NCBI GenBank assembly: GCA_027080995.1
Contig: JALWNT010000029.1
Span: 1-61,652, forward strand
Reading direction: 5' to 3'
DNA length: 61,652 nucleotides
From: Campylobacteraceae bacterium
GTDB taxonomy: Bacteria > Campylobacterota > Campylobacteria > Campylobacterales > Sulfurovaceae
Part shown: positions 1 through 49,789 of the stretch, piece after piece
Numbering within the stretch: the first letter of the stretch is position 1
How the letters are laid out: every line of letters begins with the position of its first letter
Notes under the pieces: generated by a model
Database searches by the model: none
Seen by the model: only the letters and a program-made list of their open reading frames with translations
Told to the model about the DNA's origin: nothing
Position numbers and translations under genes: made by a program

Positions 1-375
1 GCTGATGATCTCCGGGGAGACGCGGTAGCGACGGGAGGCGAGCCTCAGCCAACGGCGGTTTTTCGCCATAAAGCGCCTCCCGAGTGCGACGCTTTCGGCG
101 ATGAGGATTTTGCGTTTGTAGCGGCTCCAGCTGAAGTCGGTGCTTCCTACCTTGTGCCGTCCTTGGTATCGGGCGAGGGTTTCGCTCTGATGTTTCGCCC
201 GTTTCAGCAGGGCGTAGAGACGGGCTTTGTCGAAGCCGTATCTGCTGTGCATCTTTTCGACGAAAGCCCGGGCGGCGGGAAGGCGGGAGTAGTCGACGCT
301 CTTAGCCTGGAGAGGGAGCAGAATAATGAGAAACGAGAAAATAGAAATGAGAAATTTGGGGGCGTTGCTGTGCAA
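1..375 (-). CDS. MltB-like lytic murein transglycosylase, 3' part missing
   Basis: The minus strand reads a hydrophobic N-terminal segment ending near LLPLQAKS, then a region typical of the MltB/SLT_2 family: a helix with AFVEKMHSRYGFDK, a stretch around AKHQSETLARYQG and FSWSRYKRKIL, then RFMAKNRRWLRLASRRYRVS with PEII at the window edge. The family cleaves peptidoglycan glycan strands from the periplasm. The catalytic Glu would lie beyond position 1, so it cannot be checked. No ATG is in frame; TTG at 375 is the only conventional start seen and has no Shine-Dalgarno, so the start is uncertain. The leader overlaps a quasi-repeat tract. It lies downstream of aroC on the same strand. Confidence 0.68.
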   Translation of the reverse strand, partial: MHSNAPKFLISIFSFLIILLPLQAKSVDYSRLPAARAFVEKMHSRYGFDKARLYALLKRAKHQSETLARYQGRHKVGSTDFSWSRYKRKILIAESVALGRRFMAKNRRWLRLASRRYRVSPEIIS

Positions 376-480
376 CGTGATTAAATGGAGGCGGGACTTC
401 AGTCCCGCAATGCAGGGCAGAAGCCTTGCCTCCAATATACTAATATACCAATACACCAATGACGGCGCCAACGGCGCCTT
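319..480. repeat. mosaic intergenic repeat, copy 1
   Basis: Modules in order on the plus strand: a GAGAAACGAGAAA-type array (319-353); hairpin GCGTTGC/GCAACG (362-376); hairpin GCGGGACT/AGTCCCGC (391-408); hairpin GCAGGGC/GCCTTGC (412-429); a CCAATA-type array (432-460); hairpin GGCGCC/GGCGCC (from 464). The same order recurs near 9.1 kb and 19.3 kb. It fills the gap between aroC and the transglycosylase gene. Confidence 0.8.
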
Positions 481-509
481 TGATTTCCCACTCCTCACTC
501 GAGGATTTA

Positions 510-9058: not shown

Positions 9059-9578
9059 CGATCGCACCGTTTGACGGTGCGACTTGATGATGGATTCTAG
9101 ATTCTGGATGTTGGATGTCGGGGCGTTGCGTTGCAACGCTTTCTTTTGGAGGCGGGAATTCATTCCCGCAATGCAGGGCTGAGGCCCTGCCCCCAATGAC
9201 CAATGACGTCGCCGAAGGCGACAGTCCTTGCGACTTGCGACGTGAGGCCCGAAGGGCCGTGCTTGCGACTTATAATTTTTCCTCTTCATTTCTTTTTCTT
9301 TGTTCTCGCGACAAAGAAAAAGGAAACGAAGCAAAGAAAAAGAAAACGCGAAGGACTGACGTCAAATAGAACGTTCCAGTTGAACCCAAAATTTGCATTA
9401 GCCAGCACGCCATCTGCGCCGATCATCAACACATCTGACGCACTTTCTATTGCAAAATTTGGGTTGAATTGAGGATTGTATAGAAAGTAGAGTGGCGCCT
9501 TGTGGCCCCACCAACGAAACTAAAAATCTTGCGACGTGAGGCCCGAAGGGCCGTGCTTGCGACTTGCGACTTCCTATA
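9059..9578. repeat. Repeat-dense spacer, mosaic copy 2
   Basis: No gene is supported in this 520-base gap. In order it holds: hairpin TCGCACCGT/ACGGTGCGA (9062-9082), GGATTCTAGATTCTGG-type array (9091-9118), hairpin GCGTTGC/GCAACGC plus T-rich tract (9123-9146), hairpin GCGGGAAT/ATTCCCGC (9152-9169), hairpin GCAGGGC/GCCCTGC (9173-9190), CCAATGA array, hairpin GTCGCC/GGCGAC (9207-9221), TTGCGAC array, a 36-base perfect direct repeat (9235-9270 and 9529-9564), a TTTCTTTTTCTTTGT/ACAAAGAAAAAGGAAA hairpin (about 9289-9326) and an inverted pair at 9384-9398 and 9451-9465. Confidence 0.8.
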
Positions 9579-34367: not shown

Positions 34368-34525
34368 CGATAAGCGCATAGGCGCTTATCGAGTTATTGG
34401 TGTATTGGTGTATTGGTAGATTGGGAGTGACGGTTTCGATGATACGATGCGCTGAAGAAGGTGCGGAATTGGAATTTTTCAGAAAATTCAATAACCAATA
34501 TACCAATAGACCAATAACCCAATCC
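34368..34525. repeat. Hairpin plus inverted mosaic repeat between dctP-like and dctQ-like genes
   Basis: A perfect 10-bp hairpin CGATAAGCGC-ATAG-GCGCTTATCG (34368-34391) begins right after the stop. A TATTGGTG-type array follows (34393-34424), then 64 unique bases, then the inverse CCAATA-type array (34489-34523). The arrays can pair into a long stem. The layout matches that between pstS and pstC. Confidence 0.82.
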
Positions 34526-34536
34526 GAAGGATTGCC

Positions 34537-40348: not shown

Positions 40349-40380
40349 ACGAAATCCTTTCTGAACCCTTCTGCAAGAGA

Positions 40381-40545
40381 GGTTTCACTCGAGGGCGACA
40401 AAGGAGCGCTTGCCCCAAAGGGGTGCTCGCAGCCTCCATGGCTACGCTTCGCTCCGACCGTTTCGGTTCCGAAGCTACGAAGGACAAGCAGTTGTCCTTC
40501 GCTGACGCTTCTCATTAGCGACTGCCGGAGCTATCGAGTGAAACC
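40381..40545. repeat. 165-base element with 12-bp terminal inverted repeats
   Basis: GGTTTCACTCGA (40381-40392) and TCGAGTGAAACC (40534-40545) are perfect inverses. Inside are hairpins GAGCGCTTGCCCC/GGGGTGCTC-like and GAAGGACAA/TTGTCCTTC. No reading frame is evident. It looks like a small non-autonomous element or extended REP cluster. Confidence 0.6.
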
Positions 40546-40556
40546 GGATACTCTTC

Positions 40557-41732: not shown

Positions 41733-41740
41733 GGCCGGTG

Positions 41741-43081
41741 ATGAAAGAGCTCTACCGTCAGATCCCCAAAATCGACCGGCTCCTTGCCGAGGAGGTATTC
41801 AGCGGATGCAACACCGCCTTGTTGACCGAGGCGATCCGGCAGGAGATCGAGCTTCTGCGCGACGCCATCGGCCGAGGAGAGATGCAAGGCATCGACGAGG
41901 AACCCTTGAAAGCGGCGATCCTCCGGCGCTACGGGGAGATGAGCCGCCCTTCGCTGCGTCCCCTGGTCAACGCCACCGGGGTCATCATCCACACCAATCT
42001 GGGGCGCTCCCCCATCGACCCCGAGCTCTTCGAGGAGGCCCGCGCCGTCGCCACGGGGTACTGCAACCTCGAGTACGATCTGGAGGCGGGGCGCCGGGGG
42101 GACCGCTACACCCACACCGCCGGAGCGCTGCGAGAACTCCTGGGTTGCGAAGAGGCCCTGATCGTCAACAACAACGCCGCGGCGGTTTTCCTGATCCTCA
42201 ACACCTTCGCCCAGGGCAAAGAGGCGATAGTCTCCCGGGGAGAGCTGGTGGAGATCGGCGGGAGTTTCCGCATCCCGGAGGTGATGGCGGCCAGCGGGGC
42301 GAAGCTGGTGGAGGTGGGGACCACCAACAAAACCCGCATCGCCGACTACGAAGCGGCGATCGGCGAGGAGACGGCGATGCTGATGAAAGTGCACAAATCC
42401 AACTACGCCATCGAAGGCTTCAGCGCCGAGGCGACGATGGAGGAGATCTCGGCCCTGGCGCGTGAACGGGGGGTGATCGACTATTACGATCTGGGAAGCG
42501 CCTATTTGCCGGAACTCCCCTGGGGGCTGGGGGCGGCGGAGCCCTCTTTGCCAAAGATTTTGCGCGATCCCCCATCGCTGCTCAGCTTTAGCGGCGACAA
42601 GCTCTTCGGCGGGGTGCAAGCAGGCATCATCCTGGGGCGCAAACCCCTCATCGACCGGCTCAAAAAGAATCAGATCCTGCGGATGTTCCGGGTCGACAAG
42701 GTGACGCTGGCGCTGCTGGAGCGGACGGTGCTGGCCTACCGCCGGGGGGAGACGGAGAAGATCCCCGTCCTGCGGATGCTCTTTGCCACGCCTGAGCAGC
42801 TGCGAAACCGGGCCGAGGCGCTGAGAAAACGCCTGTCGATCCCGGCGGAGATCCTGGATTCGCAGACCTACGTCGGCGGCGGCACGATGCCCAACCGGAA
42901 GATCCCCACTGTCGTCCTGGCGCTGGAGGGGGATCCTCAAACATTGGAAGCCGCCTTCCGGGCGCGCAGGATCATCGGACGGATCGAAAACGACTGTTTC
43001 GTGCTGGATATGCGGACGGTGGAGGAGAAGGATTTCGCTCAGATTGTCGAGGCGGCGGAGGAGATATTTGATGGTCATTAG
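41741..43081 (+). CDS. selA: L-seryl-tRNA(Sec) selenium transferase
   Basis: 446-aa PLP enzyme that converts Ser-tRNA(Sec) to Sec-tRNA(Sec). SelA features: RPSLRPLVNATGVIIHTNLGRSP, EYDLEAGRRGDRY, VNNNAAAVFLILNTFA, KVHKSNYAIEGF and the PLP Lys in FSGDKLFGGVQAG. ATG at 41741 is preferred to the GTG one codon earlier. It is followed by selB; the substrate tRNA gene is at 49.7 kb. selD is not in the window. Confidence 0.97.
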   Translation: MKELYRQIPKIDRLLAEEVFSGCNTALLTEAIRQEIELLRDAIGRGEMQGIDEEPLKAAILRRYGEMSRPSLRPLVNATGVIIHTNLGRSPIDPELFEEARAVATGYCNLEYDLEAGRRGDRYTHTAGALRELLGCEEALIVNNNAAAVFLILNTFAQGKEAIVSRGELVEIGGSFRIPEVMAASGAKLVEVGTTNKTRIADYEAAIGEETAMLMKVHKSNYAIEGFSAEATMEEISALARERGVIDYYDLGSAYLPELPWGLGAAEPSLPKILRDPPSLLSFSGDKLFGGVQAGIILGRKPLIDRLKKNQILRMFRVDKVTLALLERTVLAYRRGETEKIPVLRMLFATPEQLRNRAEALRKRLSIPAEILDSQTYVGGGTMPNRKIPTVVLALEGDPQTLEAAFRARRIIGRIENDCFVLDMRTVEEKDFAQIVEAAEEIFDGH

Positions 43082-43309
43082 TCATTGGAGAAAACGTGCT
43101 AAGTGCTACGTGCTAAGTGCTACGAGAAGTTGTGGCGCCGTTATTGGTGTATTGGTGTATCGGTGTATCGGGGCTGTTCTTCGTCGTTTGTCGTTCGTCG
43201 TTTGTCGTTTGAACAAAAGCGTTGCTAAGCAACGCAAACCGAAATTCTCCATTCTCCATTCTCCATTCTCCATTAAAAAACTACCCACTCATCTCTCAGG
43301 CGGTCCCGT
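43082..43309. repeat. Five repeat arrays between selA and selB
   Basis: In order: GTGCTAAGTGCTAC array (43097-43123), TATTGGTG array (43141-43171), TCGTTTGTCGTTCG array (43180-43210), hairpin GCGTTGC-TAA-GCAACGC (about 43220-43236) and CATTCTC array (43243-43275). No gene is supported in this 228-base gap. It is the densest example of the mosaic repeats. Confidence 0.85.
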
Positions 43310-45139
<1,830 letters not shown>

Positions 45140-48131: not shown

Positions 48132-48653
48132 ATGAAAGAGATCACGATGGAGACCAAAGTTTCCGAATTGCTGAACGACTATCCGGGGATGAAAGAGACG
48201 CTCATCGCCATCAACCCCAAATTCAAAAAGCTCAACAATCCCGTTCTGCGCCGCACCCTGGCCAAGGTCGCCAGCGTCAAGCAGGCGGCGATCGTCGGGG
48301 GGATGGATCCCCTGGAGCTCCTCAACCGCCTGCGAGAATCGATCGGGCAGCCGCCGGTGGATGCGGCGGGAGAGATGCTCAAGGCGGAAGAAGCGCAGGA
48401 GAAACCCGCCTGGGTTGCAGGAGAGCCCCAAGCGACCCTGGATGCCAACGCCCTGCTGGATGCCCAGAAAAATCCCCTCGCCGAAGCCAACCTGGCCCTC
48501 AGAAAGATCGGCGAAGGGGAATTCATCGCCCTGCGCTCCGACTTCAAACCCGAGCCGCTCATCGAAGAGTTCAAAAAAGCGGGGCGAGAGGTCTACTGCG
48601 AGCAGAAGGGGGAGAATGAGTTCGTCACTTACGTGAGAAAACAGGGGGAGTGA
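48132..48653 (+). CDS. DUF1858 + DUF2249 protein
   Basis: 173 aa. The N-terminal part (MKEITMETKVSELLNDYPG to LLNRLRESIG) is a DUF1858 helical domain found in hybrid-cluster-associated and NO-stress proteins; the C-terminal part (NPLAEANLALRKIGEGEFIALRSDFKPEPLIEEF) is a DUF2249 TusA-like domain but lacks the TusA Cys. The ATG at 48132 is preferred over 48114 because AAAGGAG lies 8 bases before it. It is divergent from the TauE gene. Function unknown; a redox or sulfur-transfer role is a guess. Confidence 0.8.
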   Translation: MKEITMETKVSELLNDYPGMKETLIAINPKFKKLNNPVLRRTLAKVASVKQAAIVGGMDPLELLNRLRESIGQPPVDAAGEMLKAEEAQEKPAWVAGEPQATLDANALLDAQKNPLAEANLALRKIGEGEFIALRSDFKPEPLIEEFKKAGREVYCEQKGENEFVTYVRKQGE

Positions 48654-48964
48654 TTGAGGATTGAGGATTGAGAATGGAGAATTCCGGGATCATCCTCTTC
48701 TCTCGTTCCCACCATCTTGGTGGGAACGCATATTCCAAGGCAAGATCGACCGTCGATGTAGGTTTGACCGTGTCAAACGTCACAGGGGATGTGCTTGCGT
48801 ATGTTTGAACATTTTTTGGAGATGTGGACCGGAATTAACCATTTGATCGTTTCTGAGTGATGAATCGTTATCGGGGACGTTTGGCGGGGCCAAACCTACC
48901 TGGTCTATCTTTACAAAAATAATGTATTTTGCTATAAGCATGTAAAGCATAAAAGAGGAGGGGT
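48654..48964. repeat. Repeat-rich spacer before the toxin-antitoxin pair
   Basis: It contains a GATTGAGGATTGAGAATGG array (48652-48678), palindrome CGTTCCCACC/GGTGGGAACG (48704-48728), REP-like copy 4 (48757-48783, plus) and copy 5 (48876-48900, minus) facing each other, and an AT-rich promoter-like stretch (48905-48950). No gene is seen. Confidence 0.75.
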
Positions 48965-49619: not shown

Positions 49620-49688
49620 GGAAAAGAGTTGAACGTTGAACATCGAGCAAAAAACTAACGACTAGCGACTAACGACCAAAGACTAAAC
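49620..49688. repeat. Two quasi-tandem arrays between vapC-like gene and selC
   Basis: GTTGAACGTTGAACATCGA (49628-49646) and a CTAACGACTAGCGACTAACG-type array (49658-49686), with unit length near 7. Confidence 0.7.
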
Positions 49689-49689
49689 C

Positions 49690-49789
49690 TGGCGAGAGGG
49701 TGGAGGAATCGAACCTCCCTCCGGACGGTCATCCGCCCGGACGATCGGGTTTGAAGCCCGCGGTGTCCACCAGGATCACATACCCCCCG
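49690..49789 (-). tRNA. selC: tRNA-Sec (anticodon UCA)
   Basis: On the minus strand: anticodon loop CTTCAAA gives UCA; a long variable arm CCGGGCGG-ATGA-CCGTCCGG; T arm GGAGG-TTCGATT-CCTCC; 3' strand ACCCTCTC, discriminator G and encoded CCA. These identify selenocysteine tRNA. The 5' acceptor strand reads CGGGGGGT, giving two G-U pairs and a terminal C-C mismatch. The D stem GTG(A)TCC/GGACAC has a bulged A, and the anticodon stem has one G-A mismatch. selA and selB are 4.6-8 kb away. Confidence 0.88.

What the first reader, a model, noticed from the sequence alone, without database searches (positions are those of the whole stretch)
43082..43277. Four different arrays packed between selA and selB
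Within 195 bases there are four arrays with distinct units (GTGCTAA/GTGCTAC, TATTGGTG, TCGTTTG/TCGTTCG, CATTCTC) and one GCGTTGC hairpin. Units are internally near-perfect, unlike neutral spacer DNA, which implies recent growth. Having different units side by side argues against simple slippage of one seed and for a process that repeatedly starts new arrays.
Basis: partly seen in the sequence, partly recalled or inferred. Interest (0 to 1): 0.68.

Follow-up and report, generated by a model that had tools for sequence, protein, structure and literature searches.

The report
Hairpin-anchored four-copy heptamer arrays between genes
The spacer between two selenium genes is built from short seven- or eight-letter repeats, each present about four times and set next to small hairpins, and the same building kit recurs across this bacterium and its relatives; such heptamer repeats are known in other bacteria, but the fixed copy number, fixed direction and fixed distance from a hairpin are unusual and could show how they form.

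Summary
In detail: four arrays and a GCGTTGC hairpin fill the 228-bp selA-selB spacer; 0 of 2000 letter shuffles give one such array. The reading changes. The arrays belong to a genome-wide system: 93 period-7/8 arrays in a 398.5-kb sample, with pieces of this spacer at 47 places in the genome. Three of the four arrays have counterparts at the same place in relatives with 79-94% SelB identity, copy number kept, so near-perfect units do not mean recent birth; only GTGCTAA is private. New findings: spans cluster at 30-32 bp (four units plus 2-4 nt); same-unit arrays keep one phase although flanks are unrelated; the G-rich strand reads from the gene into the spacer whatever the gene direction; a 7-3-7 terminator-like hairpin carries a variable-unit array, most often 8 nt away (29 of 36 hairpins against 111 of 1560 control points). 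Best mechanism (inferred): 7-nt slippage and template switching at hairpins, equilibrium near four copies. No Y1 transposase or RVT_1 reverse transcriptase was found in this genome. Heptamer arrays as such are known; this is a new variant.

The parts
41738..43081 (+). selA (L-seryl-tRNA(Sec) selenium transferase), left flank
   Evidence: ORF; TIGR00474 E 7e-161
43074..43087 (+). two copies GTCATTA GTCATTG overlapping the selA stop codon
   Evidence: sequence; G009 has a longer GTCATTA/GTCACTG/GTCGTTG/GTCATTG run at the same place
43094..43124 (+). array GTGCTAA/GTGCTAC, about 4 copies; private to this genome among the relatives compared
43142..43171 (+). 8-mer array TATTGGTG (3.75 copies); same place in G006, G001, G008, G009 with 3.5-3.8 copies
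43183..43211 (+). array GTCGTTT/GTCGTTC (4.1 copies); counterpart in G008; starts 7 nt from the hairpin when read away from it on the - strand
43219..43235 (-). 7-3-7 hairpin followed on the - strand by TTTTGTTC (terminator-like); covaries in 5 orthologs
43236..43243 (+). 8-nt linker AAACCGAA between hairpin and array (family form about WWACCRAA)
43244..43274 (+). array ATTCTCC (4.4 copies, ends on ATT both sides) in the hairpin slot
43281..43287 (+). single CTACCCA; array of 4.3 copies at the same place in G006
43310..45139 (+). selB (selenocysteine-specific elongation factor), right flank
   Evidence: ORF; TIGR00475 E 1e-87
320..490 (-). another copy of the composite (array, hairpin, paired GGGACT/AGGGC hairpins, TATTGGTR array, GGCGCC hairpin)
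9070..9270 (-). another composite with ATCCAAC-like, GTCATTG and AGTCGCA arrays
34395..34523 (.). inverted pair of TATTGGTR arrays; both arms are GTCATTG-type in G001 and G008
48652..48682 (+). array GATTGAG, counterparts in G001 and G008
49654..49687 (+). array ACTAACG beside the selenocysteine tRNA gene, counterpart in G008, degraded in G001

Best explanation
The spacer is one instance of a genus-wide kit in which tandem arrays of a 7-nt (sometimes 8-nt) unit, about four copies and about 31 bp long, sit beside short hairpins between genes. SHOWN: the arrays, the clustering of their length, the preferred phase within a unit family, the polarity (G-rich strand reading from the gene into the spacer), the preferred offset (mode 8 nt) from one 7-3-7 hairpin family, free assortment of units and hairpins, and persistence of arrays at the same place across species with unit changes shared by neighbouring units. 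INFERRED: a polymerase held up at a hairpin slips back by 7 nt and re-anneals on a 2-3-nt core, adding or removing units until an equilibrium near four copies; now and then it switches template to an array elsewhere and imports another unit, which spreads the dictionary. The hairpins are kept paired by terminator function, by inverted-copy correction, or both. The selA-selB copy has no gene-specific role that I could detect.
For: Density: 116 arrays in 398.5 kb (93 of period 7 or 8) against 1 in a Markov control; G011 85 in 400 kb (68) against 2. Length: exact period-7 match runs in the own sample number 11, 5, 4, then 15 at 23-25, then 3 (bins 14-16, 17-19, 20-22, 23-25, 26+), control 0. Phase: start or end phase non-uniform in 7 of 7 unit families with at least 10 arrays, p 0.012 to 2e-8 for the better end (families with fewer than 6 arrays were not listed). 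Flanks of same-unit arrays rarely alike (0-9% of pairs outside, 4-20% inside). Polarity: own 36 of 49, p 0.0016; G011 43 of 48 (2 ties dropped), p 4e-8, in all four gene arrangements; 80 loci of other phyla 48 of 63, p 3.5e-5. Hairpin slot: 29 of 36 hairpins have an array 0-14 nt away against 111 of 1560 random noncoding points; 15 of 33 offsets exactly 8; all period 7; 31 of 33 C-rich read away from the hairpin. Terminator-like hairpin after the G-strand array 39 of 205, after the C-strand 10 of 205, p 1e-5, random 41 of 2080. Unit spread at constant length: G006 ATTCTCA x3 then ATTCTCC where the window has ATTCTCC x4; paired AGTCACC units in G001; paired TATCGG units in the window. No Y1_Tnp and no RVT_1 match in this genome.
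Against: 103 of 205 arrays have no hairpin of 6 or more pairs within 20 nt. Slippage at random local seeds should not give the same unit in the same phase in unrelated flanks, so import from elsewhere must be added. A simple slippage equilibrium need not give so sharp a length peak; G011 has arrays of 15 and 27.5 copies, and arrays in other phyla spread more widely. On a Nostoc plasmid only 1 of 5 usable arrays obeyed the polarity. Why G-rich rather than C-rich strands should be extended is not explained.
Confidence: 0.45

Rival explanations
1. Small mobile elements: hairpin-plus-array or array-hairpin-hairpin-array composites are non-autonomous elements of the REPIN or cyanobacterial SDR type that transposed between spacers, carrying the arrays along.
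For: Pieces of the spacer match 47 places in the genome; a composite with fixed order of parts and a central inverted hairpin pair occurs 12 times in the own sample, two of them as half matches; hairpin covaries.
Against: No Y1_Tnp or RVT_1 match in a genome given as 99.95% complete; same-unit arrays mostly have unrelated flanks; the same hairpin carries different units; G011 has arrays and the polarity but 0 copies of the central module in its sample.
Confidence: 0.25
2. Functional transcription boundary: the G-strand array plus hairpin plus T tract is an inward-facing intrinsic terminator module that insulates neighbouring genes, and the array length is held by selection (for example as an RNA spacer or binding track).
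For: G-strand arrays lead into terminator-like hairpins more often than C-strand arrays (39 against 10 of 205); polarity is inward at both edges; stem kept by two-sided changes.
Against: The unit sequence varies freely, so no sequence-specific binding; relatives G010, G012 and G007 have selA-selB gaps of 6-33 nt and no array; the whole spacer RNA is no more stable than shuffles (z -0.15); about four in five G-strand arrays have no such hairpin downstream.
Confidence: 0.15
3. Plain slippage of chance seeds, the generic long-simple-sequence-repeat process, with no special relation to hairpins.
For: Heptamers are the commonest long repeat class in many bacteria (stated in PMC4679880 and PMC4692102, passages read); CTACCCA one copy to 4.3 copies at one place.
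Against: Preferred phase in unrelated flanks, preferred offset from hairpins, polarity, shared dictionary.
Confidence: 0.1
4. Assembly artefact of short-read genomes.
For: The window genome is in 127 contigs.
Against: The same features are in G011, a single 2.1-Mb contig, and in several independent relatives.
Confidence: 0.02

Closest known systems
Heptanucleotide long simple sequence repeats of bacterial spacers (Mrazek 2007, read only as cited in PMC4679880 and PMC4692102)
   Same: Tandem 7-mers, mostly between genes, several units per genome, slippage proposed, 7 nt linked to the polymerase contact length
   Different: Those passages mention no copy-number peak, fixed phase, inward G-rich polarity, or fixed distance to a hairpin; I read passages only
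Cyanobacterial STRR heptamers and SDR hairpin elements (Mazel 1990, Elhai 2008; both recalled, not found in the library)
   Same: As recalled: heptamer arrays interleaved with 20-odd-nt hairpins that covary; nested composites
   Different: Different lineage and, as far as I can tell, different sequences; here one hairpin family has an array slot at 8 nt; on 150 kb of a Nostoc plasmid I found only 8 intergenic arrays and no inward polarity (1 of 5)
TAACTGA repeats of Beggiatoaceae (PMC4679880, abstract and passages read)
   Same: Intergenic heptamer arrays of few copies, patchy across phyla
   Different: One unit only, mostly just upstream of start codons; here many units, at both gene starts and ends, with mirror polarity
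GGGAATC / GGGGA(C/T)T heptamers of Xanthomonas and Nostoc (PMC4692102, abstract and passages read)
   Same: G-rich heptamers between genes, some in inverted pairs, sites conserved between species with sequence and length variation
   Different: G-quadruplex units; no hairpin slot described in the passages read
REPINs / RAYT (PMC3116915, abstract and passages read)
   Same: Dispersed inverted hairpin pairs between genes
   Different: No Y1 transposase in this genome; heptamer arrays are not described as part of REPINs in the passages read

Membership tests
Bacterial heptanucleotide simple sequence repeats | tandem units of 5-11 nt longer than chance, 7 nt commonest | tested here: met
   116 against 1 control arrays, 72 of period 7; match runs above 16 only at periods 7 and 8 among periods 5-11
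Bacterial heptanucleotide simple sequence repeats | length change between strains | not tested
   only one genome per species held; between species copy number is mostly kept, with one change from 1 to 4.3 copies
Cyanobacterial STRR/SDR | heptamers together with small covarying hairpins | tested here: met
   (resemblance to a recalled description only)
Cyanobacterial STRR/SDR | same element sequences / cyanobacterial lineage | not tested
   SDR sequences not at hand; 79 ATTCTCC arrays of other phyla show no GCGTTGC scaffold by eye
REPIN | RAYT (Y1_Tnp) in the genome | tested here: not met
   0 matches in G000, 99.95% complete; present in 18 of 31 genomes searched
REPIN | inverted pair of conserved hairpins as dispersed unit | tested here: inconclusive
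   central inverted pair: 12 in own sample (two as half matches), 0 in G011 sample
TAACTGA repeats | unit TAACTGA, forward and upstream of start codons | tested here: not met
   a query starting with TAACTGA x3 gave matches starting at its position 16 or later, carried by the ATTCTCC part; arrays at both gene ends with mirror polarity
Intrinsic terminators | G+C-rich stem followed by a T run | tested here: met
   43235-43219 on the - strand, TTTTGTTC; enriched after G-strand arrays
Intrinsic terminators | transcripts end there | not testable with these tools
   needs RNA data

The most novel reading that the evidence does not exclude
The roughly 31-bp arrays are written as discrete cassettes by a hairpin-guided process with a 7-nt step: the hairpin sets where and in which direction the cassette is laid down (8 nt from the stem, G-rich strand towards it), while the unit is copied from a small circulating dictionary. 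That would be a DNA-writing activity beside hairpins needing no transposase and no reverse transcriptase of the families searched, and it would explain why heptamer arrays recur in many phyla.
Probability: 0.15. Interest if true: 0.85.

Novelty: new variant of a known kind. Interest (0 to 1): 0.52.

Why it matters
Why bacterial spacers favour 7-nt tandem repeats has been open since at least 2007. A lineage in which arrays have a preferred length, phase, direction and distance from a hairpin turns that into a testable mechanism, and gives orthologous sites where array birth, unit replacement and inter-arm correction can be watched. The polarity also seems to hold in array-bearing loci of other phyla, so it may be a general rule.

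Tried and rejected
Transposase or reverse-transcriptase driven spread: PF01797 and PF00078 searched in 31 genomes, none in this genome. One large palindromic element with matching arms: arrays match inverted sequence in their own spacer only slightly more than in other spacers (own 6 of 53 against 6.8% null; G011 7 of 52 against 5.3%), although single spacers show matched arms (34395-34523). A structured RNA over the whole spacer: z -0.15; no Rfam family there. BLAST of plasmids: one search gave only short weak matches, none (probably the low-complexity filter). Nostoc plasmid as a yardstick: 150 of 303.6 kb read, too few arrays, and 1 of 5 against the polarity rule. Paper searches for the genus name with repeats and for long simple sequence repeats gave nothing on this genus in the rows listed; novelty claims rest only.

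Limits: gene ends come from a simple longest-ORF rule (100 aa), arrays in one spacer are not independent, own-genome stretches came from contigs noticed through ATTCTCC or SelB-related matches, while the G011 stretches were evenly spaced.

Full report
WHERE IT LIES. The window is a whole contig of an unnamed 1.97-Mb genome in 127 contigs. The spacer 43082-43309 lies between selA and selB; a selenocysteine tRNA is at 49694-49788. The genus is most likely Nitratifractor (Campylobacterota): relative G011 is a single contig of 2,101,285 bases, the size I recall for N. salsuginis DSM 16511; this name comes from no call.

OBSERVATION. All four arrays and the hairpin are there. Shuffles of the spacer give no such array in 2000 letter shuffles.

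NOT LOCAL. The own sample (window plus 18 stretches, 398,508 bases) holds 116 arrays of period 4-14 against 1 in a Markov control: 72 of period 7, 21 of period 8. An evenly spaced 400-kb sample of G011 holds 85 against 2, 62 of period 7. The window sequence 43127-43290 matches 47 places in its own genome, itself included, and many in relatives.

ORTHOLOGOUS SPACERS. Relatives with SelB identity 94, 91, 83, 79, 77 and 72% have 158-458 nt between the aligned ends of selA and selB, filled with arrays and hairpins; the eight more distant genomes compared have 0-54 nt and none. The TATTGGTG array keeps 3.5-3.8 copies in five genomes. The slot after the hairpin holds ATTCTCC (window), ATTCTCA then ATTCTCC (G006), and ATTCACC with variants (G001, G008, G009), always 4.1-4.6 copies. 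Near selA the unit differs: GTGCTAA/C in the window, GTGAGGA in G006, G001 and G008, GGATTTT in G011. CTACCCA is single in the window and 4.3 copies in G006. In the spacer at 34380-34530 both inverted arms are TATTGGTG-like in the window, G006 and G009, and both are GTCATTG-like in G001 and G008. So arrays persist while their units change together, and some arrays come and go.

LENGTH AND PHASE. Exact period-7 match runs in the own sample show a separate peak at 23-25 matches (15 runs), that is spans of 30-32 bp; periods 5, 6, 9, 10 and 11 give nothing above 16. G011 shows 11 runs of 20-25 and five longer, including the two long arrays. In other-phyla loci the peak is not so sharp. Within a unit family the first and last bases fall on preferred positions, although 60-nt flanks of same-unit arrays are mostly unlike.

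POLARITY. Noncoding arrays in the left half of a spacer are G-rich on the + strand and in the right half C-rich: own 20 and 16 against 7 and 6; G011 26 and 17 against 3 and 2, two ties dropped; arrays in spacers over 700 nt were left out; seen for tandem, convergent and divergent genes. In 80 loci fetched from other phyla by ATTCTCC x3, the other heptamer arrays follow it 48 of 63 and the ATTCTCC arrays themselves 27 of 36. A Nostoc plasmid did not (1 of 5).

HAIRPIN SLOT. Among 36 GCRTYRC 7-3-7 hairpins in genus sequence, 29 have a heptamer array starting within 14 nt of the stem against 111 of 1560 random noncoding points; the offset is exactly 8 in 15 of 33 cases, copies run from 2.6 to 5.6 with 29 of 33 between 3.3 and 4.6, and the unit varies: ATTCTCC, ATTCTTC, ATTTCTC, ATTCCTC, ACTCCTC, ATCCAAA, ACTATTC, ACTGCTC, ATTTTTC. 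The hairpin finder required pairing (one mismatch allowed), so covariation was counted only on the five selA-selB orthologs chosen by position: 35 of 35 cells paired, three of seven pairs changed on both sides (28 of 500 shuffles reach that), covariation score reached by 4 of 500. On the strand where the array is G-rich the hairpin tends to be followed by T-rich sequence: a terminator-like hairpin follows 39 of 205 G-strand and 10 of 205 C-strand arrays. Of 205 arrays, 102 have a 6-bp or longer hairpin within 20 nt on at least one side, against 65 of 520 control places.

MECHANISM. A stalled polymerase slipping back 7 nt at hairpins, with a length equilibrium near four units and occasional template switching to arrays elsewhere, fits length, step, unit spread and preferred offset. 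Phase conservation in unrelated flanks needs the template-switch part. Mobile-element spread would explain the composites, but not the free assortment of units and hairpins, nor the absence of the two enzyme families searched. A terminator function for the hairpins is compatible with either and is suggested by the T tracts. None of this was tested by experiment.

KNOWN OR NEW. Heptamer arrays between genes are known in cyanobacteria, Xanthomonas and Beggiatoaceae (PMC4692102 and PMC4679880, abstracts and passages read); the first also cites a heptamer in Helicobacter pylori. Small hairpins among heptamers are recalled from cyanobacterial SDRs. The preferred length, phase, polarity and hairpin offset were not in the passages I read.

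Noticed in passing
window 40377-40547: A 171-bp dispersed element with inverted ends (about GGTTTCACTCGA ... TCGAGTGAAACC), two further full copies at 88-89% identity and partial copies in the own sample: MITE-like.
   Followed up: partly
window 9277-9363: An 87-bp partly self-complementary element with four further near-full copies at 90-93% in the own sample and many at 90-99% in G001, G006 and G009; looks recently active.
   Followed up: partly
window 9385-9475: Inverted pair AACCCAAAATTTGCA ... TGCAAAATTTGGGTT about 50 nt apart between two AGTCGCA-type arrays, another possible miniature element.
   Followed up: no
L134, L135, L139, L140 (orthologs of window 34380 and 48640): Relatives carry an insert with sequence like GTCATTCCGGACTTGATCCGGAATCCAGAG and TCTGAAAAA ends in spacers where the window has none.
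   Followed up: no
L013 (G009 selB): SelB of G009 is reported with one in-frame TGA in its match; sequencing error, frameshift or recoding not examined.
   Followed up: no
L052:13307-13412 and L054:4201-4393 (G011): Two very long perfect heptamer arrays (about 15 and 27.5 copies) in the single-contig relative, outliers from the four-copy mode.
   Followed up: no
outer ends of many arrays, e.g. L067:16500-16570, L073:16140-16215, L074:12389-12460: Arrays often start directly after the 3' arm of a long perfect palindrome of unique sequence next to a gene end, several with a CCTTTG-like loop (17 of 61 outer hairpins at offset 0), as if the gene edge had been copied back inverted.
   Followed up: partly
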